This document shows positions 1,424-50,878 of a DNA stretch of 64,000 bases, one piece after another. Location of the stretch: the NCBI RefSeq assembly GCF_022458895.1, contig NZ_JAINFL010000002.1, positions 992,001 through 1,056,000 of the forward strand. Direction: 5' to 3'. Below the pieces are notes generated by a model, which was not told the DNA's origin, did no database searches, and worked only from the letters and a program-made list of their open reading frames with translations. Within the stretch, counting starts at the first letter, position 1, and the number at the start of each line of letters is the position of its first letter. The DNA comes from Roseihalotalea indica (lineage in GTDB: Bacteria; Bacteroidota; Bacteroidia; Cytophagales; Cyclobacteriaceae). Both the position numbers and the translations under genes were made by a program.

Positions 1424-4400
1424 ATGAGAAACTCTACAAACTATTTATTTTTTCTACGCGGAGATTCGCTAAAGCGATACCTTCTGTGTGGGATTGCATT
1501 TACGTTGCTCTCTTTCGGTGCCTGGGCTCAGGAGCGAACCGTATCCGGAACCGTTACCGGTGCTAATGATGGTGAAGCCCTACCAGGAGTAAACGTGATT
1601 TTAAAAGGAACTACTCAGGGAACAGTGACCGACATTCAGGGAGATTTTAGCCTGTCCGTTCCATCCGATGGGGGCACCCTGGTTTTCTCTTTTATTGGCC
1701 TCATGTCTAAAGAAGTAGCTATTGGTAACCAATCTACACTGGATGTGACCATGGAGGAAGATGCTCAACAATTAAACGAAGTTGTTGTAACAGCCCTGGG
1801 CGTTGAGCGTGAAGAACGCTCATTAGGATATGCCGTGCAGGAGGTGAGCGGAGAAGAGCTTACCGAAGCCCGTGAAACCAACGTAGTAAACTCACTGGCC
1901 GGAAAAGTAGCTGGTGTACAGGTCACCGGAGCTTCTGGTAACCTGGGTGGTTCATCCCGCATTATTCTACGGGGTATCAACTCCATTTCTAAGGATAGCA
2001 ATAACCAACCGCTCTTCGTCGTAGACGGTACCCCCCTTGATAACTCAAACTATAATACTGAAAATACCCAATCGGGCGATGGTGGCCGGGATTATGGTAA
2101 TACCATTCAGGATTTGAACCCTGATGATATTGCTTCTATCTCAGTTTTGAAAGGTCCAAGCGCCGCTGCACTTTACGGCTCTCGGGCTTCCAACGGGGTA
2201 ATTCTAATCACTACCAAAAAAGGCTCTAACCGTAAGGGCATTGGTGTTGAAATCAATTCTAACCTGACATTCAATAACGTATACATCCTGCCCGACTATC
2301 AGAATGAATACGGCGGAGGATATGTACAGGAATTTGGAATGCACGAGGGCGAACCAGTGGTGAACTATGCAGCTGACGAAAGCTGGGGGCCCCGCATGAA
2401 CGGCCAACCCGTGCGTCAGTGGTATAGCTGGTATCCTGATGATCCGGATTACGGACAGATGACTCCCTTCTTGCCTCACCCGGATAACGTACGCGACTTC
2501 TACGAAACTGGTAAAAGCTTTACCAACAGTGTAGCGCTTTCAGGTGGCAATGAAACCACCTTATTCCGATTGTCATATACCAATCTTAATCAAAACGGGA
2601 CCATCCCTAACAGTACGCTGGAGCGGAACACCGTTAGCCTGAATGCCAGCACCAAACTGACCGATAAGTTCACTGCATCTACCAGCATGAGCTATGTACG
2701 CAATGAGGTAGATGGAGTACCCGGCACCGGATATGGTAATGATGCCGGTAACGTAGTAACTTCTTTCAACCAGTGGTTTCAGCGTCAGATTGATATGGAC
2801 AAACTGCGCAACTACCAGACTGCCGATGGACGAGATCGTACCTGGAATATTAAAAGCCCGACAAACTTAGATCCGTTGTACTGGGAAAACCCTTATTATG
2901 TACTGTATAACAGTTACGCAACTAGCCAGCGCGAGCGACTTTACGGTAATATTTCCTTGTCATATGAAATAGCTCCATCACTGAAAGTAACTGGTTGGGC
3001 CCGCACTGACTATTACACTGACCGCCGCGACGATCGGATTGCTACCGGCTCTATCCCACAGGATATGTATACTGAAGAAGTGCGCGAAGTGAAAGAGAAC
3101 AACTTCGAGTTATTGGTGCAGTACAATAAGCAACTCAATGACGATTTCTCATTAGGAGCTAATCTGGGAACGAACCGACGAACCAATACTTTTTTCAGCA
3201 ACACCGGGCGTACCCAGGGTGGATTGAACGTGCCTAATTTCTTCAGTCTGGAAGCATCAGTAGACCGTCCGTTAATTCAGGATTTCTATAGTGAGCGGCA
3301 GATCAACAGTGTGTATGGTTCGGCCAACGTAGGTTTCCGTGATATTATCTATCTGGAAGGGACCTTACGTAATGACTGGTCTTCTACCCTGCCAGAAGAT
3401 AACAACTCGTATCTGTATCCTTCAGTCACCAGTAGCTTTGTTTTCTCTGAGTTGTTTCCAAACTCAAATGTATTATCGTTTGCTAAATTACGTGCCGGGT
3501 GGGCTCAGGTAGGTAATGATACCGACCCTTACCGGTTAGCCGGTGTTTACCGCTCAGAAAGTAATTATGGCGCGCAGCCTGCCTTCTCAGTGCCTAACCG
3601 CTTAAACAACAGCGAGCTACGGCCGGAGATTACCAGCTCTTATGAAATAGGGGTAGACTTGCGTTTCTTCCAGAACCGTTTAGGAATAGATGTAACGTAC
3701 TACGACAATGAAACTACCGACCAAATTCTGCCTTTGGACGTTTCTGCCACCAGTGGCTTTAAAGATGCAATCGTAAATGCTGGGTTGGTAACGAACCAGG
3801 GCTGGGAAGTAATGCTGACCGGAACCCCGATAGAACTGGCTAATGGCTTCCGCTGGGATATTACTGCCAACTGGGCGCGTAACCGCAATGAGGTAGTAGA
3901 ATTAGCCGAAGGACAAACCAACTATTTAATTGCCAGTTGGGGACCTTCTATTAACGCCCGGGTAGGTGAGCCCTACGGTACCATCGTAACTGAGGCGTTC
4001 GTTCGCAACGAAAACGGAGATCGTATTGTCGGTGATGATGGTTTCTTCCTTCGGGAAATTGACCAGGTGGTTGGCAACATCCTGCCAGACTTTACTGGTG
4101 GGGTGAGCAACCAGTTCTCATTTAAAGGGGTTAACCTTAGTGCCTTGGTTGACTTCCAGAAAGGTGGTGCGCTCTATTCAACTACCAATCGCTATGGTGA
4201 ATATTCCGGACTGTTAGCAACCACTGCTGGAACCAATAGCCTGGGCAACCCTAAGCGCGATCCGGTACTTATCAATGATGACGGCACGGTTGATCCTAAA
4301 AGTGGGGGTGTTATTGCAGATGGCGTTATAAACGTGGGTACTGAAGAAAATCCGGTATACGAAAAGAACACTATCCCAACCGATGGTAACGAGTACTTCC

Positions 4401-4681
4401 AACGTATTCGCTCTATCCGGGAGAATTATACTTATGATGCCAGCTTTATCAAGCTTCGAGAAGTACGGGTAGGGTATACTTTCCCTAAATCTCTTTACGA
4501 GAATATTCCGGTGCAGTCTATCTCCCTGGCTTTTGTGGGTCGTAACCTGGCATTGCTTCACTCTAATGTTCCAAATATCGATCCCGAATCTGCTTTGGGC
4601 TCTGGCAACATTCAGGGGTTTGAGAACGGACAGCTACCCAGCGTTCGCTCACTTGGCTTTAACTTAAATATCAAATTGTAA
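1424..4681 (+). CDS. SusC/RagA-family TonB-linked outer membrane transporter
   Basis: A 1085-residue TonB-dependent transporter that forms the outer membrane barrel of a SusCD pair and imports substrate using energy from TonB-ExbBD. A signal peptide runs to about residue 35 (FGAWA|QE). It is followed by a CarboxypepD_reg-like beta-sandwich at about 38-118 (VSGTVTG...LPGVNVILKGTTQGTVTD), and then the plug starting at LNEVVVTALG. The SusC signatures LFVVDGTPLDN and ISVLKGPSAAALYGSRASNGVILITTKKG are intact, although the latter is read here only in parts: VLKGPSAAALYGSRA and NGVILITTKKG. The barrel ends in an aromatic/hydrophobic tail (GFNLNIKL). No STN domain is present, so it is unlikely to signal to an anti-sigma factor. 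The SusD partner begins 75 bp downstream. The substrate cannot be inferred. Confidence 0.95.
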   Translation: MRNSTNYLFFLRGDSLKRYLLCGIAFTLLSFGAWAQERTVSGTVTGANDGEALPGVNVILKGTTQGTVTDIQGDFSLSVPSDGGTLVFSFIGLMSKEVAIGNQSTLDVTMEEDAQQLNEVVVTALGVEREERSLGYAVQEVSGEELTEARETNVVNSLAGKVAGVQVTGASGNLGGSSRIILRGINSISKDSNNQPLFVVDGTPLDNSNYNTENTQSGDGGRDYGNTIQDLNPDDIASISVLKGPSAAALYGSRASNGVILITTKKGSNRKGIGVEINSNLTFNNVYILPDYQNEYGGGYVQEFGMHEGEPVVNYAADESWGPRMNGQPVRQWYSWYPDDPDYGQMTPFLPHPDNVRDFYETGKSFTNSVALSGGNETTLFRLSYTNLNQNGTIPNSTLERNTVSLNASTKLTDKFTASTSMSYVRNEVDGVPGTGYGNDAGNVVTSFNQWFQRQIDMDKLRNYQTADGRDRTWNIKSPTNLDPLYWENPYYVLYNSYATSQRERLYGNISLSYEIAPSLKVTGWARTDYYTDRRDDRIATGSIPQDMYTEEVREVKENNFELLVQYNKQLNDDFSLGANLGTNRRTNTFFSNTGRTQGGLNVPNFFSLEASVDRPLIQDFYSERQINSVYGSANVGFRDIIYLEGTLRNDWSSTLPEDNNSYLYPSVTSSFVFSELFPNSNVLSFAKLRAGWAQVGNDTDPYRLAGVYRSESNYGAQPAFSVPNRLNNSELRPEITSSYEIGVDLRFFQNRLGIDVTYYDNETTDQILPLDVSATSGFKDAIVNAGLVTNQGWEVMLTGTPIELANGFRWDITANWARNRNEVVELAEGQTNYLIASWGPSINARVGEPYGTIVTEAFVRNENGDRIVGDDGFFLREIDQVVGNILPDFTGGVSNQFSFKGVNLSALVDFQKGGALYSTTNRYGEYSGLLATTAGTNSLGNPKRDPVLINDDGTVDPKSGGVIADGVINVGTEENPVYEKNTIPTDGNEYFQRIRSIRENYTYDASFIKLREVRVGYTFPKSLYENIPVQSISLAFVGRNLALLHSNVPNIDPESALGSGNIQGFENGQLPSVRSLGFNLNIKL

Positions 4682-4756
4682 GAAATATCAACCACGGAAG
4701 GATGGTCTGACGCCTAAGCGTTGTTACCATCCCTCTGCATAAATATTATTGATTCT

Positions 4757-25291: not shown

Positions 25292-25479
25292 GTGCTGAAG
25301 CGAAGAGAAACGAGTATTATCGTTTAAGTAGAATAGAAGGATAGATCACCTTATTGTCGCGCGAAGCTATGGTAAGATATAGGTGGTAATATTTGCCAAA
25401 TTGGCTAACTTGAAGGAAGTAGTAATATTATACTGTCTTACCCTTGGTAAATTATTCTCTTGGTAACGACAGTTTCAAT

Positions 25480-25523
25480 TAACAGGAGATAGCCGCATAT
25501 GTGTGCTATCCCTATGTTATGCC
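25480..25523. repeat. Palindromic cassette-boundary-like site (attC-like) 1
   Basis: TAACAGGAGATAGC at 25480-25493 is mirrored by GCTATCCCTATGTTA at 25505-25519, giving an imperfect hairpin with extra unpaired bases in one arm. The right end reads GTTATGCC and the next start codon lies 8 nt later. The 304-bp gap 25228-25531 holds only this and the terminator. Confidence 0.45.
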
Positions 25524-25531
25524 TCATTCGA

Positions 25532-26086
25532 ATGAAAATAAAACTCTCAATATTACTGTCTTTATTTGCGAGTGCATGTTCCACAGAGAACTTATCTTAT
25601 GAGCAGATACTATTCTCTCGAGTTGAATTTACATCCAATGAAAAACAATACAACAAAGGCATTGAAGAGTCAAAAAGATTTGGATTACTGTTGAACCTGG
25701 ATAGCATCAAATCTATGGATTCATTTAAAACACTGATTAATGAAAATTACTGCGACAAAATATTTTTTATTCAACTTTCTGAAATTTCAAAAGTAGCCTA
25801 CTTACCGATAAGCTATTACTGTAATGAAATCATTGATATCAATATTAAAGACGTCACAGTTATCAGGAAGATTGAAGATGTGAAAGGTTCAACAAATAAA
25901 AACAAATCACTTGTAATTGATACTCATGCTTTGAAGGTAATTGATTTGAAGAAGATTGCAAATCAGATTGCCCTGGATTACAAGTCAACTTTGGAAGAAA
26001 AAACTGGCAAACCAATTGAAGATTTGTCAATAACTGAGAGAATAGAAACAGTGAAAAAAGTACCTTTGACAATAATGATAATATAA
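25532..26086 (+). CDS. Lipoprotein of unknown function
   Basis: A 184-residue protein. The start at 25532 is preferred to the in-frame ATG at 25499 because MKIKLSILLSLFASAC is then a proper lipoprotein signal peptide with the Cys at residue 16. The upstream ATG would also lie inside the palindrome before the gene. The mature protein is Lys-rich and lacks recognisable motifs. Its codon usage is clearly more AT-rich than that of the Sus array to the left. Palindromic boundary-like sites flank it on both sides, and there is no terminator of the usual kind behind it. I do not recognise a family; a role cannot be given. Confidence 0.75.
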   Translation: MKIKLSILLSLFASACSTENLSYEQILFSRVEFTSNEKQYNKGIEESKRFGLLLNLDSIKSMDSFKTLINENYCDKIFFIQLSEISKVAYLPISYYCNEIIDINIKDVTVIRKIEDVKGSTNKNKSLVIDTHALKVIDLKKIANQIALDYKSTLEEKTGKPIEDLSITERIETVKKVPLTIMII

Positions 26087-26092
26087 AAACGA

Positions 26093-26223
26093 GGCATAAC
26101 AAAGAGCAAGCGCCACGGCTGGTAAATGAGCAAATGTTGCATCAAAGCCAACAAGCTTGAAAACAGAACTCGGCAGAAAACTGCGCCAAAGCCGCCGCGA
26201 CGCCTGCTCTAGCCGTTACAGCC
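26093..26223. repeat. Palindromic cassette-boundary-like site (attC-like) 2
   Basis: The left arm at 26093-26114 (GGCATAACAAAGAGCAAGCG and two more) is mirrored by the right arm at 26199-26223 (GCCTGCTCTAGCCGTTACAG within it). They pair through TAAC, AGAGCA and GCG with unpaired bases on one side. The site starts 7 bp after a stop codon and ends in GTTACAGCC, 14 nt before the next ATG. Confidence 0.55.
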
Positions 26224-26237
26224 CATAGAACTATAAA

Positions 26238-26654
26238 ATGATAGTTGCAGGATTGATTAAGTTTTTGATTGGATTTATAGGATTGACTACAACAATTATA
26301 TATCTAATTTCCTTTGCGTTTAAAAGGAACTCTAGATCACTGAAGAAAGCTGGAATAGTTTTCGGTTCAACCGTGACTGTTATAATAGTCATCACTTTGA
26401 TGGAACTTTCACTCTACCCTGTTAATCAAAAGAAGGATCAATTAGTACTAACTGCGTTCAGAGAAGCCCCGATTGGAGCTTATTGGCTCGGACTTTATAT
26501 AAAAGGAGATACTATTTTATTAAAAGCTACTTCAGAAAAAGGTTTCTATAATGGTGATACGCTAAATTATTTTCTCATTAAAGGGCAGGATTTAGTAGAG
26601 ATGGAAAATACTGAAATCAGAGGTCTAAAAATTACGATGAACAAATTAAATTAA
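26238..26654 (+). CDS. Small two-TM membrane protein of unknown function
   Basis: A 138-residue protein with two predicted membrane helices (about residues 2-27, beginning MIVAGLIKFLIGFIGLTTTI, and about 38-60, GIVFGSTVTVIIVITLMELS). These are joined by a short basic loop (KRNSRSLKK) that would face the cytoplasm. The C-terminal 80 residues are soluble and would be outside the cytoplasm if both helices cross. No family recognised. It sits alone between two palindromic boundary-like sites with no promoter or terminator of the standard type. Confidence 0.7.
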   Translation: MIVAGLIKFLIGFIGLTTTIIYLISFAFKRNSRSLKKAGIVFGSTVTVIIVITLMELSLYPVNQKKDQLVLTAFREAPIGAYWLGLYIKGDTILLKATSEKGFYNGDTLNYFLIKGQDLVEMENTEIRGLKITMNKLN

Positions 26655-26716
26655 TATGGACTGTAGCATCGCTCAGTCCTCTCCCTAGCAAAATTACTAA
26701 ACGTGAGTTGGTCGCG

Positions 26717-26791
26717 CTAAGCACGAAAATTGATACACGAAAGTAAAAAAGCTAACAAGTCGGGCGACGATTGCCCTAATCGTTGCCAGCC
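26717..26791. repeat. Cassette-boundary-like intergenic site 3
   Basis: The gap carries CTAAGCACGAAAATTGATA (26717-26735), a motif repeated in three other gaps, then a GGGC/GCCC hairpin, and ends in GTTGCCAGCC at 26782-26791, 7 nt before the next ATG. The left arm is not clear; GGACT/AGTCC at about 26660-26680 may be part of it. Confidence 0.4.
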
Positions 26792-26798
26792 ATAAAAA

Positions 26799-27260
26799 AT
26801 GACGAAAGACTCGATAATTGACCTTGATAGGTATCTTGAGAAGAAAGGTTACTATGCAATGAACCCTATAATTAATTTGGATGAGATTAATCAATCCATC
26901 TTAGATCAATGGGATAACCACCTAAAAGACTCGATCGTCAATGACTTAAAACGGAAACTAAAAGAGGTTGAAATAATTAAAACTAGAAGCTTATTCGATT
27001 TGATCTCAGATGAGCAAGGTGCGACACTTTACAAATTGTTTCTGGATCTGAAGGATGAGGACGAAAAAATTGAGGTAATTATCAAACTGATTGTTAGCTA
27101 CGAACTAGCTGTTATCTACTTGGGATCACGACATGCTAATGAGAACAAATATATTGGAAAGAGTAAAATCTTAAAGATGGTATTCAAAGAGCTAAAGAAA
27201 GCAGATGAGAATTTTGGATATTTTCATCCAATTGACTTTTATAAATTTATGATAGGATGA
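26799..27260 (+). CDS. Soluble protein of unknown function
   Basis: A 153-residue predicted cytoplasmic, largely helical, highly charged protein without a signal peptide or membrane segment. It opens MTKDSIIDLDRYLEKKGYYA and has a central helix DLKDEDEKIEVIIKLIVSYELAVIYLGSR. Its size and composition recall immunity-like or regulator-like small proteins of mobile cassettes, but no diagnostic motif is present. The stop codon is immediately followed by the left arm of the next palindrome. Confidence 0.7.
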   Translation: MTKDSIIDLDRYLEKKGYYAMNPIINLDEINQSILDQWDNHLKDSIVNDLKRKLKEVEIIKTRSLFDLISDEQGATLYKLFLDLKDEDEKIEVIIKLIVSYELAVIYLGSRHANENKYIGKSKILKMVFKELKKADENFGYFHPIDFYKFMIG

Positions 27261-27402
27261 GAATACGGCTGACACCAAAATTTAGTAGATGGCTCTGTTG
27301 GAAACACAATTAGGAGTTTAAATCTCTAAACTCGAAAATTAATAAACGAAAGAGAGACACAAATAAAACCGGGTCAGCTATTCGCAAAGGCCGTTGGCAT
27401 TC
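27261..27402. repeat. Palindromic cassette-boundary-like site (attC-like) 4
   Basis: GAATACGGCTGACACC at 27261-27276 is mirrored by GGGTCAGCTATTC at 27371-27383. The pairing is GAATA then GCTGAC, with a CG dinucleotide and an A bulged on the left arm only. Inside lies the shared motif CTCGAAAATTAATAAACGAA (27331-27350). The right end reads GTTGGCATTC. The left arm begins directly after a stop codon. Confidence 0.5.
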
Positions 27403-27415
27403 ATTGAAAACTGAA

Positions 27416-27904
27416 ATGGAAACTGAAAAGACTTTCAAAACGAAAACAGGATTTTGCCACATTCTGCCAGACAAAATTGTTTTAACAAGAGATGGAATTG
27501 TTGGAAACATATCTAAAGTGACTGTGGGAAATAACATCGCAAGAATTTTAATAATTTATGGAACAATAATTATTGGGCTTTTCTATTTTGCATTTGAAGC
27601 ATTTCAAAACGGACAGACCTTACAGTCAATTCTATTTGGATTGATTGGACTTTATCTTATCTATGGAATTATTAGTAGCCTTAATAATTCAGCAACTCCA
27701 ATTATCGACCGACATAAAATTAGAGAAGTAAAGCTTAAAAAAGCTATTAAAGGGATAACACGTTCGAGGTTTGAAGTGCTGTTCGAGGATGAAAACAGAA
27801 AAATTAAAAAGCGCTTAATTATGCTTCCTGGCTCAATGAGTGGCGGACAAAATGAAACAGAGAAAGCAGTTAAAATAATGACAGAAGAACAACTTTTGAG
27901 ATAA
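27416..27904 (+). CDS. Two-TM membrane protein with PH-like soluble parts, function unknown
   Basis: A 162-residue protein. The ATG at 27416 (METEKTFKTKTG) is preferred to an in-frame TTG at 27404. An N-terminal soluble segment (CHILPDKIVLTRDGIVGNIS) is followed by two adjacent membrane helices (about residues 43-63 and 72-92, IARILIIYGTIIIGLFYFAF and SILFGLIGLYLIYGI). A C-terminal soluble segment with a beta-rich pattern (SRFEVLFEDENRKIKKRLIM) follows. A split PH-like fold around a membrane hairpin is a plausible reading but is inference. Related small Bacteroidota proteins exist, and I would not trust enzyme names attached to them. It sits between two palindromic sites. Confidence 0.7.
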   Translation: METEKTFKTKTGFCHILPDKIVLTRDGIVGNISKVTVGNNIARILIIYGTIIIGLFYFAFEAFQNGQTLQSILFGLIGLYLIYGIISSLNNSATPIIDRHKIREVKLKKAIKGITRSRFEVLFEDENRKIKKRLIMLPGSMSGGQNETEKAVKIMTEEQLLR

Positions 27905-27922
27905 ATAAACAACGAAATGCAG

Positions 27923-28026
27923 CAATAGCTAAAAGCCACGCAGGGTTTGGGTAACTTGATATTTTAAGGCTCAATTGCTCAAGTTCAATTCTAAATGCAT
28001 TACGTCATCCGCCCGAACTTTTAGCC
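27923..28026. repeat. Palindromic cassette-boundary-like site 5
   Basis: GCTAAAAG at 27928-27935 is mirrored by CTTTTAGC at 28018-28025, about 80 bp apart. GC-rich stretches lie on the loop side of both arms. It begins about 20 bp after one stop codon and ends 30 nt before the next ATG. It is weaker than sites 2 and 4. Confidence 0.35.
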
Positions 28027-28055
28027 AAAACATTGATGCCCACAAAAATGAATTC

Positions 28056-29144
28056 ATGAAGCCATTTATCCTATTACTAAGTGTATTCCTGTTTTCTTGT
28101 TCGAGTGGACAAACGCAACCGCCCGATAATCTGAGACAAGCGATCCCTGAGCTGCCTTTTGCTTCGTTGGAGGATTCAGGTTTTGACAAAGATTCAATTG
28201 AAAACCTTCTAACGTTTATAAACGAAACCCCGCCCAATGACTTTAGAGGATTGGTTGTTGTCAAAAATAACCACATAGTCATTGAAGAATATTTTAATAC
28301 TTTTTGGAGGAACTCAATTCACGATATCAGGTCAGCAGGAAAGAGCATCACTTCGTTGCTATTAGGAATTGCCCTGAAAGATGGCTTGGTGCAGAATGTA
28401 GAGCAAAATGTTTATTCGTTTTTCCCTAAAGGCAACAACCCACCCTTGAATGAGGATTATAAGCAAATTAAACTCAAACATCTCCTTACTATGTCATCAG
28501 GGCTGGATGCTGACACAGATAACGCTCAATCTATGGGGCATGCTGTAAACTGGGTAGCGAGAGATGATTGGAAAGAGTATATCCTGAACATTCCTCTAAC
28601 CTCTGAGCCCGGAAAAAAGTGGGTCTACGCTGATATCAATCCCTTGTTAATTGCTGCTATCATTGAGGAGACATCCGGGATGAGCCTGAAAGAGTATGCC
28701 CAGCAAAAGCTGTTTGCCCCTTTAGGAATAACACAGTTTTATTGGTATACAAATGCAGCAAACCAGACCGGAGCGGCGGGTAATTTGTATCTGTCAACAC
28801 TGGATTTCGCTAAAATCGGAATGCTCGTTGTAAATGAGGGAAAATGGAAGAGTACCCAAATTATTGACCCGGATTACATTAAGCAATTGTCGCAGGAAAC
28901 CTTCGATCTTACCGATAGTAACCCTTATGCAGACGCTTACGGCATGCTATGGTACACGTCTCACAGAACTTTCGGAAAGAAAAAAGTGGACTACCTGTTT
29001 GCCTCTGGAAATGGGGGAAATCATTTAATAGTCATTCCTGAAGAAGAGATGGTCATAGCATTAACATCCAGCGCATACGGGCAAGGATACGGCCACCGAA
29101 GGTCGTACAACATTATGAGTAAAATACTTTCTTCATTAGACTAA
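28056..29144 (+). CDS. Beta-lactamase-family serine hydrolase, lipoprotein
   Basis: A 362-residue class C beta-lactamase-like (PF00144-type) hydrolase. The ATG at 28056 is chosen because MKPFILLLSVFLFSC gives a lipoprotein signal with the Cys at 15; the longer frame from 27975 would run through the upstream palindrome. The catalytic S93-A-G-K96 tetrad (RSAGKSITSLLLG) is present. The second motif is Y191-A-D rather than the usual YxN, and FASGNGGNHLIVIPEEEMVI supplies the third region. Family members include esterases, DD-peptidases and nylon-oligomer hydrolases; the substrate cannot be told. It faces the periplasm or surface. It has the same orientation as the unrelated genes around it. Confidence 0.88.
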   Translation: MKPFILLLSVFLFSCSSGQTQPPDNLRQAIPELPFASLEDSGFDKDSIENLLTFINETPPNDFRGLVVVKNNHIVIEEYFNTFWRNSIHDIRSAGKSITSLLLGIALKDGLVQNVEQNVYSFFPKGNNPPLNEDYKQIKLKHLLTMSSGLDADTDNAQSMGHAVNWVARDDWKEYILNIPLTSEPGKKWVYADINPLLIAAIIEETSGMSLKEYAQQKLFAPLGITQFYWYTNAANQTGAAGNLYLSTLDFAKIGMLVVNEGKWKSTQIIDPDYIKQLSQETFDLTDSNPYADAYGMLWYTSHRTFGKKKVDYLFASGNGGNHLIVIPEEEMVIALTSSAYGQGYGHRRSYNIMSKILSSLD

Positions 29145-29207
29145 ATGGCTGACCAGAAATTTGTGAAAACAAAAACAGGCGCATAAATCATGGTGTATAG
29201 TTGAGAA

Positions 29208-29747
29208 ATGAACCAAACTGATTTTGAAGTAAAGATACTACGCCAGCATTGGATTAAAGATGACGGCCAAGATGATAAAGAAGATCTTTGCTCTCATGGA
29301 GAGGTTTATATTCGTATCGCAACGGAAGAACTTGCGACAAAAGAATCAGGCTCTTGGACATTAAGTGCAACGGGACTTTATTTATTAAGATCATTAGAGC
29401 AAGATTGTGAGATTGGCCAGTTCTCAAATCAATTAGTCCCGTGTTGCGGGCATTTTATGGTTCCAGATGAAAAAGGTGGGAATGATGTATTAATCATGGG
29501 GTGTCCGAACGGTATTGATTGGAAAATAAGGTATTCCAATGGAGCCGTGATTTTTGAGTCTGAAAAAGGTGCCGAGGGGAGGTTGCTTTTTACTAAATAT
29601 AAAAGCTTGGTTTTCAATTTCATCAGCGAAATTGAAGATTTCTATGGTGATCCAAAAAATAAAATTATTCCTGATGAAGAGTTTGATAGGAGTGGGTTTT
29701 ATCAGTTTTGTGCAGAATGGAACGAGTTGAAAAATAAATGGAAATGA
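29208..29747 (+). CDS. Soluble protein of unknown function
   Basis: A 179-residue acidic cytoplasmic protein with no signal peptide or membrane segment. It contains several Cys/His residues (LVPCCGHFMV, MGCPNG) in the middle, and an acidic C-terminal helix (FISEIEDFYGDP, FYQFCAEWNELKNKWK). The CCGH and CPNG patterns could bind metal but do not match a known finger. The preceding 63-bp gap holds GCATAAATCATGGTGTATAG, which looks like a decayed left arm of the palindromic sites seen elsewhere. Size and context suggest an immunity-like cassette gene; this is inference. Confidence 0.7.
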   Translation: MNQTDFEVKILRQHWIKDDGQDDKEDLCSHGEVYIRIATEELATKESGSWTLSATGLYLLRSLEQDCEIGQFSNQLVPCCGHFMVPDEKGGNDVLIMGCPNGIDWKIRYSNGAVIFESEKGAEGRLLFTKYKSLVFNFISEIEDFYGDPKNKIIPDEEFDRSGFYQFCAEWNELKNKWK

Positions 29748-29795
29748 AGCTGTATAGGATTCGGAGAATATGAAGATATATCGGAAGTTTACCTT

Positions 29796-29875
29796 CCTCA
29801 GAATCACTCGAAGAGGACTCTGAGGAGAGATCGTAATGACTTTTGACTCAATTTACCGACTTAGTAAACCAACCG
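29796..29875. repeat. Dispersed hairpin element, copy A
   Basis: An imperfect palindrome at 29796-29825: arms CCTCAGAATC / GACTCTGAGG around ACTCGAAGAG, itself a CTC-GAA-GAG mini-hairpin. About 55 bp further a second conserved block reads CCGACTTAGTAAACCAACCG (29856-29875). The same two blocks at the same spacing recur at 53911-53988. Confidence 0.75.
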
Positions 29876-29891
29876 TAATAAAGTCTAATGA

Positions 29892-30542
29892 ATGAATGAA
29901 AGAAATATATTTGTAAGTGTTGGAGGTACCGCAACTGAAAAACAGGAGTCTTTTGTGCAAGCAATTGAAGACCGTTTGAGGAGTGAAAATTTGGTTCCAA
30001 CAACTGTAGGCCGAAATACATTCAGCTCAGATTCACCCATTAAGGCTGTGATAGAATGCATGAATGAGAGTTCAGGAGCTATTATAATTGCACTCGAAAG
30101 GACATACTTTCCCCATGGTCTGGAAAAGCGAGGGGGGACAAAGGAAAAAGAACTAAGCGAAAAAAAGTATGCTACACCATGGAATCAAATTGAAGCAGCG
30201 TTGGCATATTCCAATGGATTGCCAATAATGGTGATTGTTGAAGAGGGTGTGCAAGAAGAAGGTCTATTAGAAAAAGGGTATGATTGGTATGTTATGTCTG
30301 TTAAGTCAGACCCATCTACACTTAATTCAAATGAGTTCAATGGAGTATTATCTAGTTGGAAAAGGAAAGTAGAATCTTATCAAACAAAAAAAATAAAGTC
30401 TTTCAACCAAGAAGATTTAGCAAAATTAAGTGTAGGGGAATTTATTCAGATATTAAGGCCATCACAACTATGGGCAATTTTGGTAGCGATAGCAGCTTTA
30501 GTCTCAGGTGCTTTTGCGATCGGCTCCAAGCTTTTTGGTTAG
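29892..30542 (+). CDS. TIR/SLOG-like domain protein with C-terminal membrane helix
   Basis: A 216-residue protein. Residues about 1-150 have a Rossmann-like alternation: an N-terminal strand NIFVSVGGTA, a helix beginning KQESFVQAIEDRL, a strand SGAIIIALERTYF, and PWNQIEAALAYSNGLPIMVIVEEG. In TIR and 2-deoxyribosyltransferase-like folds a conserved Glu (here in QIEAA) sits in this position and cleaves the glycosidic bond. A linker (about 155-185) leads to one C-terminal membrane helix (LWAILVAIAALVSGAFAIG). A nucleotide-sensing or NAD-consuming domain tethered to the membrane is the layout of several antiphage effectors. The fold is inferred from pattern only; a cassette-like context is consistent with a defence gene. 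Confidence 0.6.
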   Translation: MNERNIFVSVGGTATEKQESFVQAIEDRLRSENLVPTTVGRNTFSSDSPIKAVIECMNESSGAIIIALERTYFPHGLEKRGGTKEKELSEKKYATPWNQIEAALAYSNGLPIMVIVEEGVQEEGLLEKGYDWYVMSVKSDPSTLNSNEFNGVLSSWKRKVESYQTKKIKSFNQEDLAKLSVGEFIQILRPSQLWAILVAIAALVSGAFAIGSKLFG

Positions 30543-30559
30543 TTGAACTGAAATAAAAC

Positions 30560-30737
30560 ACTCATAACAATGTATATATCTTATGGTGAATGAAATGCTA
30601 AACTCGAGGTTTTAGGCTCATAACCAAGTCCGTTCTAGGCTAAATTGGATAGTGCTCCTAAAACTGCTACAAGCCATATGAGAGCCCCACATAATCCAAA
30701 TAAAAAATAATCTCCCCTCACCGGGGGCAATCGTTAC
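30560..30737. repeat. Cassette-boundary-like site 6
   Basis: ACTCATAACAATGTATATAT at 30559-30578 has the left-arm character of site 2 and of the 48.3-kb site (TAACAATG). It is mirrored weakly by CAATCGTTAC at 30728-30737, which directly abuts the ATG of the next gene. A CCCC(N4)GGGGG mini-hairpin precedes the right end. Confidence 0.35.
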
Positions 30738-31328
30738 ATGTCTGAACATCGTCACTTCGTTATTCATAAGCCATTGGGGTATTTATCGCAGTTTATTAAC
30801 AATCAAAAGCGGCGAAGGAATAAAAAATTGCTGGGCGAGCTTCATGACTTTCCGGAAGGCACCATGTCTATTGGTCGCTTAGATGAAGACTCGGAAGGTT
30901 TGCTGTTGCTCACCACCGATGGTAAAGTGAGCGCGCAGGTGCGAAGCAAGACGGTTGAAAAGGAATACTATGTTCAGGTGGATGGCGAAATTACAGATGA
31001 AGCCATAGAGCAGCTAAAGGGTGGTGTAGAAATAAGCATAAGAGGTAAGGAGTACAAGACCCTACCCGGTAAGGCTGCTCGTTTAAATCCGGCTCCCACC
31101 TTTGAGTCGCGCGCAAAAAAAATAAGAGATGAAAGGCACGGGCCCACCAGTTGGCTATCCATCACCATTACGGAAGGGAAGTTCAGGCAGGTGCGTAAAA
31201 TGACGGCGGCGGTGGGGTTTCCTACCTTACGTTTAATCCGGGTGCGCATTGGTACGGTCACTCTCAATAAATTGCGCTCGGGCGAAGTGCTTGAGGTCGA
31301 TGACTTTCAGCTTATGACCGAACAGTAA
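30738..31328 (+). CDS. rluE: 23S rRNA pseudouridine synthase, RluE/RluF-like
   Basis: A 196-residue pseudouridine synthase of the RsuA/RluB/E/F branch, which isomerises a specific uridine in ribosomal RNA. The catalytic motif GRLDEDSEGLLLLT is intact with the nucleophilic Asp at residue 49. The KPLG motif at the N terminus and the GKFRQVRKM RNA-binding motif near residue 155 are also present. There is no S4 domain and the length is short, which fits RluE (U2457) best. It is a housekeeping gene standing next to the cassette-like region. Its start abuts the CGTTAC end of the last palindromic site. Confidence 0.92.
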   Translation: MSEHRHFVIHKPLGYLSQFINNQKRRRNKKLLGELHDFPEGTMSIGRLDEDSEGLLLLTTDGKVSAQVRSKTVEKEYYVQVDGEITDEAIEQLKGGVEISIRGKEYKTLPGKAARLNPAPTFESRAKKIRDERHGPTSWLSITITEGKFRQVRKMTAAVGFPTLRLIRVRIGTVTLNKLRSGEVLEVDDFQLMTEQ

Positions 31329-48260: not shown

Positions 48261-48301
48261 GTTGGCAGCCATTTATGAAGGGAGAGTGAACGGCTGCCAA
48301 C
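48261..48301. repeat. Perfect 10-bp inverted repeat around a 21-nt interval
   Basis: GTTGGCAGCC at 48261-48270 and GGCTGCCAAC at 48292-48301 are exact inverse copies. The first has the GTTRSC right-end form and follows GTGTATACACTA, the complement-like partner of the ATGTGTATG after the second. It therefore looks like the right end of one site placed next to the left end of another. Confidence 0.6.
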
Positions 48302-48377
48302 AATGTGTATGGGCAATTTAAATTTGATTAATAATTTTAAAGGTAAATTTAAACTGCACATAATTAGTGTTGCCTGC
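48292..48377. repeat. Palindromic cassette-boundary-like site (attC-like) 7
   Basis: This is the clearest example in the window, 86 bp long. The left arm GGCTGCCAACAATGTGTATG (48292-48311) continues into CAATTTAAATTT (48314-48325). The right arm is AAATTTAAACTG (48345-48356), then CACATAATTAG and TGTTGCCTGC (48368-48377). The inner stems pair in 11 of 12 positions, the ends pair as CAACA/TGTTG, and the ATGTG/CACAT stem lies between unpaired bulges. The right end GTTGCCTGC is 16 nt before the next ATG. Confidence 0.6.
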
Positions 48378-48393
48378 AAGCTAAATTAGAAAA

Positions 48394-48723
48394 ATGACTT
48401 CAGAAGAATTTGTACTCGGATTCTATAGAGAACGTGAAAATCTGATGAATTTATACTTTCATCCTAAATCGGAAACTGACATAGGGCAGTTGATACAATC
48501 TCTGCAATTAGATAAAGAAAAAGCAAAGGCGCTAAAATTGATTGTGAACGGTGTGATCAGAGATGTAATGTATAGCATTTTGTTAGGGATTGATGGAGAA
48601 GCTGCCATTGGTGATAGACAAGAAACTTACAAACTGTTAGATGAGGACAATAACGAGTTGACAGGCGGAGAGATCGAGGGTTACGCATGGGAATACTTTC
48701 AAAATAGAGAAGAGAGACAATAA
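48394..48723 (+). CDS. Small soluble protein of unknown function
   Basis: A 109-residue acidic cytoplasmic protein. It has a long amphipathic helix region (IGQLIQSLQLDKEKAKALKL) followed by VNGVIRDVMYSILLGIDGEA and an acidic C terminus (EIEGYAWEYFQNREERQ). Similar small helical proteins occur as immunity-like or cassette genes in Bacteroidota, but I do not recognise a family. The gene is flanked by perfect inverse 10-mers TGTTGCCTGC (48368) and GCAGGCAACA (48764), as expected if it were one mobile unit. Confidence 0.68.
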   Translation: MTSEEFVLGFYRERENLMNLYFHPKSETDIGQLIQSLQLDKEKAKALKLIVNGVIRDVMYSILLGIDGEAAIGDRQETYKLLDEDNNELTGGEIEGYAWEYFQNREERQ

Positions 48724-48763
48724 TATTTTGACCACTCGAACCGATTAAAAGATAGAAAAGCCA

Positions 48764-48887
48764 GCAGGCAACATCGGGCAATTCTTAGCTTGGCGAAAGT
48801 TAAGCCAGAACATTAGCTGTGCCAAGTACGAAAATTAATAATTTAAAAGACAAGCGCCTATAAACCTGGCCGTTGGCTCGCGCTGGC
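48764..48887. repeat. Palindromic cassette-boundary-like site (attC-like) 8
   Basis: GCCAGCAGGCAAC (48760-48772) is mirrored by GTTGGCTCGCGCTGGC (48872-48887): GCCAGC pairs with GCTGGC and the CAAC ends with GTTG, with 3 extra nt in the right arm. Inside lies the shared motif CCAAGTACGAAAATTAATAA (48822-48841). No gene starts directly behind it; the next ATG is 190 bp away. Confidence 0.45.
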
Positions 48888-49076: not shown

Positions 49077-49751
49077 ATGAAAACTCTAAACGCCACTGTC
49101 CTATTGTTGTTATTCACCTCGCTTGTGTTTGGCCAGAAAGTAAAACTTTCAAAGGCCAATGTAACGCCAAATAATACTGAGATATCTGAAGTGAAATTTA
49201 AAGGTAAAAACGCCTTGAAAGTGAAGGCAATAGTGGGCAGTGAGTTAGCGATTGTAAAACTACCCAACTCCAACTTTGAAGATGGTATCATTGAGTTTGA
49301 AATGGCTTCTAACAGAGCTATCGATGCACATCCGGAAAACAGGGGTTTTGCCGGAATGGCCTTTCATGTGTCAGAGGATAATTCCGCATTGGATTGCATT
49401 TACCTAAGAGCTACCAACGGCCGGGCTGAAGACCAGGTACGGCGAAACCATACGGTACAATACTTCGCTTTACCTGATTTCCATTTTCCAGTTCTACGAG
49501 AGAAGTTCCCTGAAAAGTATGAAACCTATGTAGATGTAGTGCCCAATGCGTGGATAAAACTAAAAATCGTAGTGGAAGGTCGAACAGCTAAACTCTACGT
49601 GGCTAATCAAAGTCAACCCACCCTCATTGTGAGTGAAATGCTTAATAAGAATACCTCAGGCGATATTGCTTTGTGGGTAGGTGGGGGCACTATTGCTTAT
49701 TTTGCCAATGTGAAAATCACAAAAGGCAGAAGTGAAAAAAACGGGAAATGA
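49077..49751 (+). CDS. Secreted concanavalin-like (LamG/DUF1080-type) domain protein
   Basis: A 224-residue secreted protein (signal MKTLNATVLLLLFTSLVFG, cleaved at FG|QK). It forms one jelly-roll domain: KFKGKNALKVKAIVGSELAI, NFEDGIIEFEMASNRAIDAH, GFAGMAFHVSEDNSALDCIY and AWIKLKIVVEGRTAKLYVAN are the typical strand pairs of DUF1080/LamG sugar-binding or hydrolase-like domains. The pattern GxxAFHVSEDNS followed by YLRATNGRAED is common in Bacteroidota family members annotated as hypothetical. Catalytic residues cannot be placed. Confidence 0.78.
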   Translation: MKTLNATVLLLLFTSLVFGQKVKLSKANVTPNNTEISEVKFKGKNALKVKAIVGSELAIVKLPNSNFEDGIIEFEMASNRAIDAHPENRGFAGMAFHVSEDNSALDCIYLRATNGRAEDQVRRNHTVQYFALPDFHFPVLREKFPEKYETYVDVVPNAWIKLKIVVEGRTAKLYVANQSQPTLIVSEMLNKNTSGDIALWVGGGTIAYFANVKITKGRSEKNGK

Positions 49752-49770
49752 GAAGAACGGCGTTACTACT

Positions 49771-49938
49771 GCCAACCGTGTGTATGTAACATAGCGCTGG
49801 CCCAGTGTTGCATTGTAGTTTCAGTTTCTTAATTTCGTTCGGTGTTGTGAGACAAAACGCAGCCGTTCGCTAAAGCCATTCATTTGTCATTAGGCTTTAG
49901 CTCTTAAATCGCTACGTTTTATATACCAGCGTTGTGGC
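49771..49938. repeat. Palindromic cassette-boundary-like site (attC-like) 9
   Basis: GCCAACCGTGTGTATGTAA (49771-49789) is mirrored by TATATACCAGCGTTGTGGC (49920-49938), with small bulges. Inside, GCTAAAGCC at 49869-49877 and GGCTTTAGC at 49893-49901 form a perfect 9-bp hairpin. The right end GTTGTGGC lies 19 nt before the ATG of the next gene. Confidence 0.5.
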
Positions 49939-49957
49939 TAATTCTGAAACAACAAAT

Positions 49958-50878
49958 ATGAAAGCAGTTGCCTACAAAAAATATGGCCCCCCCAATGTCT
50001 TAAAGTTGGTAGATATCGAAAAGCCGCAAGTAAAGGACGATGAGATTCTTGTTAAAATATATGCAACAACCGTCACGTCAGGAGATGCTAGATTACGTGC
50101 TTCAGATTTTCCACCTCTGGCCTGGCTTCCGGTCAGGTTGGTGTTTGGTCTGTTCAAGCCAAAAAAAGAAATATTAGGGCATGAATTATCGGGTGTTGTG
50201 GAAGTCGCCGGAAAAGACGTTACCCAGTATAAAGTTGGCGATGAAGTTTTTGGCACCCCTACCATGCTTAAAACCGGCTCGTACACCGAATATATATGCA
50301 TACCACAAGAAAGAAAAAAAGGAGTACTCGGGTTAAAACCAAAAAACCTTAACTTCAAAGAAGCGGCAGCCCTGCCCGTGGGTGGGATGACCGCCTTATT
50401 TCTGTTAAACAAAGCTAATCTCAGCCAGGAGCAGGATGTATTAATTTATGGCGCTTCAGGAAGTGTAGGAAGCTACGCTATTCAAATTGCTAAGGCTCAA
50501 GGTGCCACCGTGGTGGCGGTCTGTAGTAGTTCTAACTTCGACATGGTAAAATCACTTGGGGCGGTCAGCACGATTGACTACCGGAAAGAGGATTACGCGC
50601 TGCTCACAAAAAAGTTTGATATCGTGTTTGACGCCGTGGGAAAAACATCAAAATCGAAAGCCAAGAAAGTATTGAAGCAAGGAGGTAGGTTTGTTTCGGT
50701 AACGTCACTCACCAGCCCGAAACAGGAGCATCTAAATAAACTACGTGAACTTGCTGAACAGGGAAAAATTAGACCATATATAGATCAATGTTTTCCCCTT
50801 TCTGAAATGGTGGCCGCACACGAGTATGTTGATAAGGGACAAAAAAAAGGGAACGTAGTCATTGAAGTAGCCAATTAA
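49958..50878 (+). CDS. MDR-family NAD(P)H quinone/alcohol oxidoreductase
   Basis: A 306-residue zinc-independent medium-chain dehydrogenase. The ATG at 49958 (MKAVAYKKYGPPNVLKLVDI) is preferred over a GTG at 49934. The substrate domain is followed by the NADP-binding VLIYGASGSVGSYAIQIAKA motif and the GGRFVSVTS strand. The missing structural zinc Cys cluster marks the quinone-oxidoreductase/enoyl-reductase-like branch. It is followed 22 bp later by a serine hydrolase in the same direction, likely one transcript. Substrate unknown. Confidence 0.9.
   Translation: MKAVAYKKYGPPNVLKLVDIEKPQVKDDEILVKIYATTVTSGDARLRASDFPPLAWLPVRLVFGLFKPKKEILGHELSGVVEVAGKDVTQYKVGDEVFGTPTMLKTGSYTEYICIPQERKKGVLGLKPKNLNFKEAAALPVGGMTALFLLNKANLSQEQDVLIYGASGSVGSYAIQIAKAQGATVVAVCSSSNFDMVKSLGAVSTIDYRKEDYALLTKKFDIVFDAVGKTSKSKAKKVLKQGGRFVSVTSLTSPKQEHLNKLRELAEQGKIRPYIDQCFPLSEMVAAHEYVDKGQKKGNVVIEVAN

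What the first reader, a model, noticed from the sequence alone, without database searches (positions are those of the whole stretch)
25480..30737. Cassette-like array: lone small genes separated by attC-like palindromes
Seven + strand genes of unrelated type, more AT-rich than their neighbours, follow one another. At least five gaps hold imperfect inverted repeats with extra unpaired bases in one arm. Their right ends read GTTATGCC, GTTACAGCC, GTTGCCAGCC, GTTGGCATTC and GTTAC, close to the integron R' form GTTRRRY, and the next start codon lies 0-20 nt later in every case. Left arms begin a few bases after a stop codon and contain TAAC or GCTGAC. Integron cassettes have this order: gene, palindromic site, next gene, same direction, no own promoter. 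A cluster of attC sites lacking an integrase (CALIN) or a Bacteroidota-specific analogue fits. No integrase gene is in the window.
Basis: partly seen in the sequence, partly recalled or inferred. Interest (0 to 1): 0.82.

Follow-up and report, generated by a model that had tools for sequence, protein, structure and literature searches.

The report
Decayed cassettes of a Bacteroidota integron
The window holds a weathered row of small mobile gene units from a gene-swapping system that looks like an integron, seems common among the Bacteroidota, and is run by an enzyme lacking a hallmark part of recognised integron enzymes, so usual searches may pass it by.

Summary
Unit 1 (25516-26214) is an intact cassette: its first bases (GTTATGCCTC) are the exact reverse complement of its own end (GAGGCATAAC), followed by a hairpin site. 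Units 2-4 are decayed; some relatives of each elsewhere are intact cassettes bounded at GTT (5 of 17 examined). Units 5-7 are unproven. A covariance model built from other genomes finds four sites in the window (E 1.7e-6 to 8e-4), all on the + strand, two of them outside the finding.

Elsewhere such cassettes lie downstream of, and co-oriented with, a tyrosine recombinase: 61 units downstream and 0 upstream of 27 integrases with room to judge. Two Chryseobacterium plasmids share the integrase platform up to ...CAAG^TT, 105 nt past its stop, and differ beyond. The integrase is sister to IntI (97/86) but lacks the IntI additional domain in 46 of 46 measured. The family is in 191 of 395 Bacteroidia genomes. 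I found no description in the held library. A truncated copy sits beside tet(X3), which looks like a first-position cassette. No recombination was tested.

The parts
25479..25523 (+). short attC-like or acceptor hairpin before unit 1 (TTAAC, 7-bp stem, GTTATGCC)
   Evidence: sequence; bottom-strand fold; not found by model R1
25516..26214 (+). unit 1: intact cassette; gene 25535-26086 (or from 25499), no Pfam match
   Evidence: own start GTTATGCCTC = reverse complement of own end GAGGCATAAC (26091-26100), 10 of 10, P 2e-4; Pfam
26089..26226 (+). attC-like site of unit 1
   Evidence: model R1 37.2 bits, E 1.7e-6; folds
26215..26781 (+). unit 2: decayed cassette; gene 26238-26654, no Pfam match
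   Evidence: own end 8 of 10, P 0.017; relatives L104 (0 mismatches) and L099 (1 mismatch) are cassettes, five other relatives show no such ends
26658..26793 (+). decayed site of unit 2 (R'' GGACTGTAGC to R' GTTGCCAGCC)
   Evidence: spacing 114 nt; DNA homology to the L200/L104 stretch up to 26742; no R1 hit
26782..27392 (+). unit 3: decayed cassette; gene 26799-27260, no Pfam match
   Evidence: own end ACGGCTGACACC 8 of 10, P 0.018; relative L101 is a cassette, L098 and L100 show no such ends
27265..27404 (+). decayed site of unit 3
   Evidence: spacing 116 nt; no R1 hit
27393..28031 (+). unit 4: decayed cassette; gene 27416-27904, no Pfam match
   Evidence: 81% protein and 82% DNA identity to a cassette in G039 (L091), homology 27392-27920; L092 also a cassette, L093 not; own-end test in the window fails (P 0.45)
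27912..28043 (+). decayed site of unit 4
   Evidence: model R1 12.5 bits, E 0.34
28057..29144 (+). gene of PF00144 family (beta-lactamase-fold serine hydrolase); unit status unproven
   Evidence: Pfam; own-end test P 0.52
29208..29747 (+). gene without Pfam match; unit status unproven
   Evidence: four relatives L094-L097 found, none with complementary ends
29892..30542 (+). gene without Pfam match, followed by a site; own start not found
30557..30695 (+). attC-like site after the last gene of the finding
   Evidence: model R1 34.6 bits, E 6e-6; 67% DNA identity to a stretch of the G039 array (L199)
48261..48368 (+). second cluster: ORF-less mini-cassette with its site (R1 match 48290-48380)
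   Evidence: own start GTTGGCAGCC and own end GGCTGCCAAC complementary; R1 24.8 bits, E 7.8e-4
48369..48782 (+). second cluster: cassette with gene 48394-48723 (109 aa)
   Evidence: own start GTTGCCTGC and own end GCAGGCAAC complementary; ORF; R1 only 10.9 bits at 48761-48782, E 0.72
49765..49942 (+). single attC-like site between genes 49077-49751 and 49934-50878
   Evidence: model R1 31.7 bits, E 2.6e-5; complementary partner ends not found

Best explanation
The stretch is an integrase-less, partly decayed row of gene cassettes of a Bacteroidota integron-type system. A complete system elsewhere consists of a tyrosine recombinase related to IntI but without the IntI additional domain and with an extra N-terminal part (HARP-like in one subfamily); an attI-like site soon after its stop codon; and a co-oriented array of cassettes. 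Each cassette begins with TTRNNNNN.. just after the G and ends with its own reverse complement (..NNNNNYAAC), followed by an L-box hairpin and the G of the next GTT. Proposed mechanism (inferred): the excised circular cassette carries a long R-arm because its own start and end pair; one strand folds into the attC-like hairpin; the recombinase joins it at G^TT to the attI-like site, or now and then to secondary chromosomal sites. Cassettes in the window would have entered this way and then lost their sites by mutation. Shown by comparison: units, boundaries, orientation, association with the integrase, covariation of the stem. Inferred: single-strand recombination, which strand, and that this integrase does the work.
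For: 5 of 17 relatives of window units are cassettes bounded at GTT with complementary start and end, 4 of them without mismatch. Finder over 42 integrase loci: the 27 with at least 3 kb downstream hold 61 start-end pairs downstream (a few nested), 0 upstream, 1.1 in shuffles; 20 of 27 have one or more, 16 of 27 two or more. Model R1 over 40 of these loci: 68 hits, 66 downstream on the integrase strand (23 loci), 2 upstream in one locus, 0 on the other strand; R1 was built partly from these loci, and in loci not used to build it the count is 14 downstream, 2 upstream. 10 of 10 stem pairs show double changes over 48 sites. 92 of 95 sites have the longer spacer on the R' side. Own start and own end agree, beyond the nine positions fixed by the search rule, at 0.72, 0.03, 0.87, 0.84, 0.75 of 95 units, while the next cassette's start pairs well only in GTTR. 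Homology of two Chryseobacterium plasmids ends exactly at CAAG^TT after the integrase. Near-identical cassettes in new neighbourhoods of G039. Tree: family sister to IntI, 97/86. R1 hits in the window.
Against: No recombination was seen; all is comparative. 12 of 17 relatives of window units show no complementary ends. 7 of 27 integrases with room downstream show no unit by the finder, though R1 finds sites in three of these (L223, L252, L254). One locus, L234, has one finder unit and two R1 sites upstream. Units 5-7 of the finding have no own-end support, and units 2-4 are decayed. The window's genome is not held, so whether its integrase exists elsewhere is unknown; its nearest held relative, G001, has 17 R1 sites but no integrase match at 1e-80 with 4 of 30 candidates scored. 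XerC/D could in principle serve these sites. The finder has a background: 24 units in 1.4 Mb of other Bacteroidota loci, both strands.
Confidence: 0.85

Rival explanations
1. Classical integron cassettes (CALIN) served by a classical IntI with the additional domain.
For: Same unit logic: gene, hairpin site, G^TT boundaries, one orientation; the recombinase is sister to IntI; NCBI's broad XerA/integron-integrase model NF040815 is passed by two of nine family members.
Against: 0 of 291 genomes of the order have a match over the TIGR02249 cut-off (at most 7 candidates per genome scored, matches split in two); 46 of 46 measured family members lack the about 43-residue insert (67-74 against 110 residues between two motifs in 12 of 12 IntI); R' follows GTTRRRY in only 13 of 118; the integrase lies co-oriented upstream.
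Confidence: 0.07
2. Cassettes are moved by the housekeeping XerC/XerD pair, and the neighbouring integrase-like gene is a passenger.
For: Other tyrosine recombinases, among them XerC/D-like ones, are present in the eight hosts searched.
Against: In 16 of 22 loci with units the first unit starts 50-144 nt after the end of the match to this recombinase, and both Chryseobacterium plasmids keep the recombinase while cassettes change; hairpin covariation and extended own-arm pairing have no counterpart in dif sites (recalled).
Confidence: 0.05
3. The palindromes are transcription terminators, REP-like repeats or MITEs between ordinary genes, and the GTT ends are chance.
For: Gaps 5 and 6 show nothing; repeats of about 356 bp occur inside the G039 array; 12 of 17 relatives lack complementary ends.
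Against: Own-start and own-end complementarity, model R1 E-values to 1.7e-6, breakpoints, strong strand and side bias beside integrases.
Confidence: 0.03

Closest known systems
Integrons with classical IntI (mobile classes and sedentary chromosomal integrons)
   Same: Tyrosine recombinase, attI-like site, tandem one-gene cassettes in one orientation, folded attC-like sites, boundary between G and TT, cassette start complementary to its own R'' (last two recalled for the classical kind); recombinase core sister to IntI, first Foldseek match IntI4 2a3v
   Different: No additional domain; extra N-terminal part, HARP-like in one subfamily; integrase co-oriented and upstream; R' is GTTRNNNNNNA, not GTTRRRY; own-arm complement extends to about 14 nt with a near-constant mismatch at position 11
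Reverse integrons of Spirochaetota
   Same: Integrase in reverse orientation relative to the usual kind (stated for Spirochaetota in PMC9668308, passage seen)
   Different: Those are IntI proteins (additional domain recalled); different phylum; no HARP modules known to me
CALIN (clusters of attC sites lacking an integrase)
   Same: Two or more sites in one orientation, no integrase relative among the ORFs of the 64-kb window
   Different: Sites belong to the variant family here and most are decayed; the term is defined on the classical attC model, which I could not run
xerD-tet(X) context of tigecycline resistance
   Same: The recombinase gene before tet(X3) in the one record read is a truncated member of this integrase family; that it is the xerD of the papers is my reading
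   Different: Published passages treat it as XerD; PMC7473080 reports no integron near tet(X14); the word integron does not occur in PMC7494873 (passages and term counts seen)

Membership tests
Classical integron (IntI) | Integrase is a tyrosine recombinase | tested here: met
   PF00589 in 7 of 7, 2 of 2 and 74 of 74; R, K, HxxR, Y region invariant
Classical integron (IntI) | IntI additional domain around patch III | tested here: not met
   46 of 46 lack it: 67-74 residues against 110 in 12 of 12 IntI, those with names being Vibrio; IntI4 residues 189-242 unmatched; TIGR02249 0 of 291 over cut-off in the order, at most 7 candidates per genome scored
Classical integron (IntI) | attI site next to the integrase where cassettes enter | tested here: met
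   Breakpoint at CAAG^TT 105 nt past the stop in two plasmids; first unit 50-144 nt after the integrase match in 16 of 22 loci with units
Classical integron (IntI) | attC sites conserved in folded structure, not sequence | tested here: met
   10 of 10 pairs with compensatory changes in 48 sites
Classical integron (IntI) | R' of the form GTTRRRY | tested here: not met
   13 of 118 distinct R'
Classical integron (IntI) | Cassettes gained and lost as units at G^TT | tested here: met
   7 of 8 duplicated pairs in G039 start within 3 nt of GTT, 1 starts 25 nt before; pairs of two repeated ORF-less elements left out; Chryseobacterium plasmids
Classical integron (IntI) | Recombination of a single-stranded folded site by the integrase | not testable with these tools
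   needs an excision or insertion assay
CALIN | At least two attC sites, no integrase nearby | tested here: inconclusive
   four sites by R1 at E below 1e-3 in the window, no integrase relative among its ORFs of 60 aa or more; but the classical attC model was not available
XerC/XerD | Recombinase groups with XerC/XerD | tested here: not met
   19 of 19 family members outside ten XerC/D rows, with IntI 97/86; TIGR02224/02225 far under cut-off in nine
HARP domain (PF07443) | Match to the Pfam HARP model | tested here: inconclusive
   57 of 74 in alignment A3, chosen mainly from relatives of the L206 integrase, at E up to 0.01, best 9.9e-9; but only 1 of 9 integrases scanned singly (L206: 22 bits, gathering score 25) matches; fold of this part not tested alone

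The most novel reading that the evidence does not exclude
Bacteroidota carry a second integron lineage, phylum-wide, whose recombinase split from the IntI line without the additional domain held necessary for IntI activity, and which moves cassettes by folded single strands, using HARP-like N-terminal modules to grip the hairpin. It is the long-missed cassette system of the phylum, cassettes also land at many chromosomal sites, and genes such as tet(X) left the phylum as its cassettes.
Probability: 0.5. Interest if true: 0.93.

Novelty: new variant of a known kind. Interest (0 to 1): 0.88.

Why it matters
One genomic survey chose integron integrases by the additional domain (PMC2426708, passage seen) and IntegronFinder uses an IntI-specific profile (PMC9024848, passages seen), so a lineage without that domain may be left out; [quoted passage not shown] Here 191 of 395 Bacteroidia genomes hold the family. 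If it works as proposed it makes testable how the single-strand reaction evolved, with or without the extra domain; gives a mechanism for the shuffling of accessory genes in a major phylum; and bears on a question left open in PMC7473080 (passage seen): whether the 'XerD' beside tet(X) genes takes part in their mobilisation.

Tried and rejected
Rfam gathering search of the window: no family; no tRNA found. Classical IntI: no genome over cut-off. A motif search for one L-box type gave 41 of 291 genomes with few hits each, many not site-like to the eye; too narrow, so a unit finder and then model R1 were used. The finder with one mismatch allowed gave many false units (94 against 43.5 in shuffles over 21 sequences); the counts use no mismatch. 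Structure prediction from one sequence was useless (mean pLDDT 39); with 74 sequences 83. The VIA-align rows nearly all cover the recombinase part (259-518), so they say nothing on the N-terminal modules. The first tree held two rows with very long branches, probably wrongly cut frames (Xer_L170, Xer_L191); one search left these out, and also Xer_L167, L187-L189 and BI_L226, L233, L243, L247, and added two XerA. IntI rows with a name are Vibrio. Tyrosine-recombinase loci as a control: 11 units in 30 loci (7 loci positive), but L173 and L175 are array integrases themselves and the rest were not sorted, so it is no clean control. Contigs end within 1500 bp downstream of the integrase in 13 of 42, which fits repeat-broken assembly, but the loci were chosen with room upstream, so no test is claimed. 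An empty site in the nearest relative could not be read: by blastn L001 shares with the window only 30735-31252.
Full report
What is in the window. The seven + strand genes at 25.5-30.5 kb are AT-richer than the two flanking genes; six of seven have no Pfam match and the fifth is a PF00144 family hydrolase. The telling feature is not the palindrome alone but the relation between the two ends of one unit. Unit 1 begins GTTATGCCTC (25516) and ends GAGGCATAAC (26100), its exact reverse complement; a random 10-mer of the region does as well in 0.0002 of draws. After this end come an L-box hairpin and the next GTT at 26215. Units 2 and 3 keep 8 of 10 (P 0.017, 0.018, uncorrected); unit 4 and a supposed unit 5 do not (P 0.45, 0.52). 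The distances from unit end to next GTT in gaps 1-4 are 114, 114, 116 and 108 nt.

Relatives. The six proteins other than the hydrolase, searched in 291 genomes of the order of the nearest relative, give matches in 18. I looked at the surroundings of 17 matches and tested them: 5 have a GTT-type start before the gene and its reverse complement after it with at most 1 mismatch of 9 (L104 and L099 for unit 2, L101 for unit 3, L091 and L092 for unit 4; none of 300 shuffles as good for four of them, P 0.03 for L099). The other 12 do not, including all four relatives of unit 6. DNA homology of unit 4 to genome G039 runs from 27392 to 27920 at 82%, from one base before the GTT to inside the R''.

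Complete systems. Genome G039 holds two long arrays. Tyrosine recombinase genes lie just before arrays or cassettes, on the same strand, in G039 (twice), G133, G249 (with a stop), G074 (split), G178 and G146. A model of seven such recombinases (A1) matches 191 of 395 Bacteroidia genomes at E up to 1e-80. I fetched 40 of the listed places and added two (42 loci). Of 27 with 3 kb or more downstream, 20 have at least one unit and 16 at least two; 61 start-end pairs downstream (a few nested), none upstream, 1.1 expected from shuffles; 7 of 27 have none. Outside these 27, locus L234 has one unit upstream. Of the 22 loci with units downstream, 16 have the first one 50-144 nt after the end of the integrase match. 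The finder's background is 24 units in 1.4 Mb of other Bacteroidota loci, both strands.

The site. 95 sites were collected, most in two size classes, about 115-121 and 43-54 nt between R'' and R'. 48 long ones align with AACA and CGTT invariant and ten stem pairs, each with compensatory double changes, for example A-U 28, U-A 19, one broken. The spacer on the R' side is longer in 92 of 95, a constant asymmetry of the kind that sets strand choice in integrons (PMC8946536, passages on unpaired features seen). Own start and own end of a unit agree, beyond the nine positions fixed by the search, at 0.72, 0.03, 0.87, 0.84 and 0.75, with a near-constant mismatch at position 11, where 114 of 118 distinct R' carry A. 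The next cassette's start does not pair so with the preceding end. This is what excision and insertion at G^TT would leave.

Second method. Covariance model R1, built from those 48 sites, over the 40 loci gives 68 hits: 66 downstream on the integrase strand, 2 upstream in one locus (L234), none on the other strand, although more upstream than downstream DNA was searched (367,648 against 224,287 bases). Part of the 66 are the model's own sites; in loci not used to build it the count is 14 against 2. In the window, which was not used, it finds 26089-26226, 30557-30695, 49765-49942 and 48290-48380 (E 1.7e-6, 6e-6, 2.6e-5, 8e-4), all on the + strand, and weakly 27912-28043. At 48.26-48.78 kb two further units stand, one without an ORF and one with a 109-aa gene. 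In whole genomes R1 gives 79 (G039), 22 (G178), 17 (G001) and 3 (G002) sites at E up to 0.001 (150 candidates per genome scored, of thousands), in G001 scattered over many contigs.

Movement. Eight pairs of like gene cassettes in the G039 arrays lie between different neighbours (pairs of two repeated ORF-less elements were left out). The shared stretch begins 0 to 3 nt before the G of GTT in seven pairs and 25 nt before in one, and ends 3-7 nt into the next GTT. Two plasmids, of Chryseobacterium sp. SNU WT5 (NZ_CP041688.1) and C. oryzae (NZ_CP094530.1), share backbone and integrase at 89.7% until ...TAAACAAGTT, whose G lies 105 nt past the integrase stop, and differ from the next base on. Pontibacter kalidii plasmid pls1 (NZ_CP111080.1) carries an integrase and six units on the integrase strand, of which three pass the strict rule and three have one mismatch.

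The integrase. It scores 193-233 bits on the integron-integrase model TIGR02249 in the nine full-length proteins scanned, always in two stretches and under the cut-off of 265; two of the nine pass NF040815, a broad model that NCBI names 'site-specific tyrosine recombinase/integron integrase', so the relation is half-visible in current annotation. The part that IntI has between the two stretches is missing: 67-74 residues against 110 in 12 of 12 IntI. The tree puts 19 family members beside 12 IntI with 97/86, apart from two XerA and ten XerC/D; the IntI sample is narrow. The predicted structure of the L206 protein (74 sequences, mean pLDDT 83) shows three beta-beta-alpha repeats before the recombinase. 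Pfam HARP matches 57 of 74 proteins of that alignment, but only 1 of 9 integrases scanned singly, so HARP is a feature of one subfamily as far as sequence models reach. HARP is known to me from SMARCAL1-type annealing helicases that bind forked DNA (recalled), which would suit a hairpin substrate; that is inference. Solved matches: IntI4 2a3v first by Foldseek (E 4.7e-18); by Z an archaeal Xer and XerA are level or ahead (23.4, 20.9, IntI4 20.3).

Against the literature. Searches in the held library listed no description of such a system that I recognised; subscription journals and preprints are missing there. Passages seen: PMC9024848 (Bacteroidetes: earlier only In0, then Salinibacter ruber), PMC9668308 (IntI defined by the additional domain; Spirochaetota in reverse orientation), PMC2426708 (integrases chosen by that domain), PMC8618304 (Bacteroidota in a list of phyla with integrons), PMC8946536. 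PMC8352920 was seen as a listing only.

A link to resistance. 50 Acinetobacter records among 102 plasmid records carry a relative of the integrase; in the one read, A. baylyi pJAT2044, it is a 221-aa fragment directly before tet(X3), with a GTT-type start between them and a truncated site after the gene (R1 19.7 bits, E 7e-4). So tet(X3) there looks like a first-position cassette. The papers seen call such a gene xerD; PMC7473080 leaves its role open (PMC7494873, PMC7473080, PMC11194056, passages). Only described here.

Verdict. A new variant of the integron kind. The window's piece is an integrase-less, decaying satellite of it. The comparative case is strong; the reaction itself is untested.

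Noticed in passing
L261 (NZ_CP104735.1) 2543-4693: Truncated Bacteroidota-type integrase directly before tet(X3), with a GTT-type start and a truncated attC-like end: tet(X3) looks like a cassette of this system. 50 Acinetobacter records in the plasmid search carry the relative; one was read.
   Followed up: partly
window 48261-48782 and 49765-49942: Further cassette units and a single site outside the finding, all on the + strand.
   Followed up: yes
L113, L196-L199 (genome G039): Many copies of a roughly 356-bp unit (GTTAGGCACAAT) and of an element with ends GTTGGGAGTGAA/TTCACTCCCAAC inside the arrays, apparently ORF-less or transposon-like cassettes.
   Followed up: no
L256 13287-17069 (NZ_CP041688.1): An IS110 transposase and a group II intron reverse transcriptase lie inside the cassette array, antisense, recalling introns and IS elements that target integron attC sites (recalled).
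   Followed up: no
L206 7278-7646 (genome G178): A single-strand binding protein gene (PF00436) stands directly before the integrase gene.
   Followed up: partly
loci: Contigs often end just downstream of the integrase (13 of 42 within 1500 bp), as expected if repeated sites break assemblies.
   Followed up: partly
L258 (Persicobacter sp. JZB09 plasmid 1) 11040-17619: Two units with the same ends (GTTGAACTACACCC) but different following sites.
   Followed up: no
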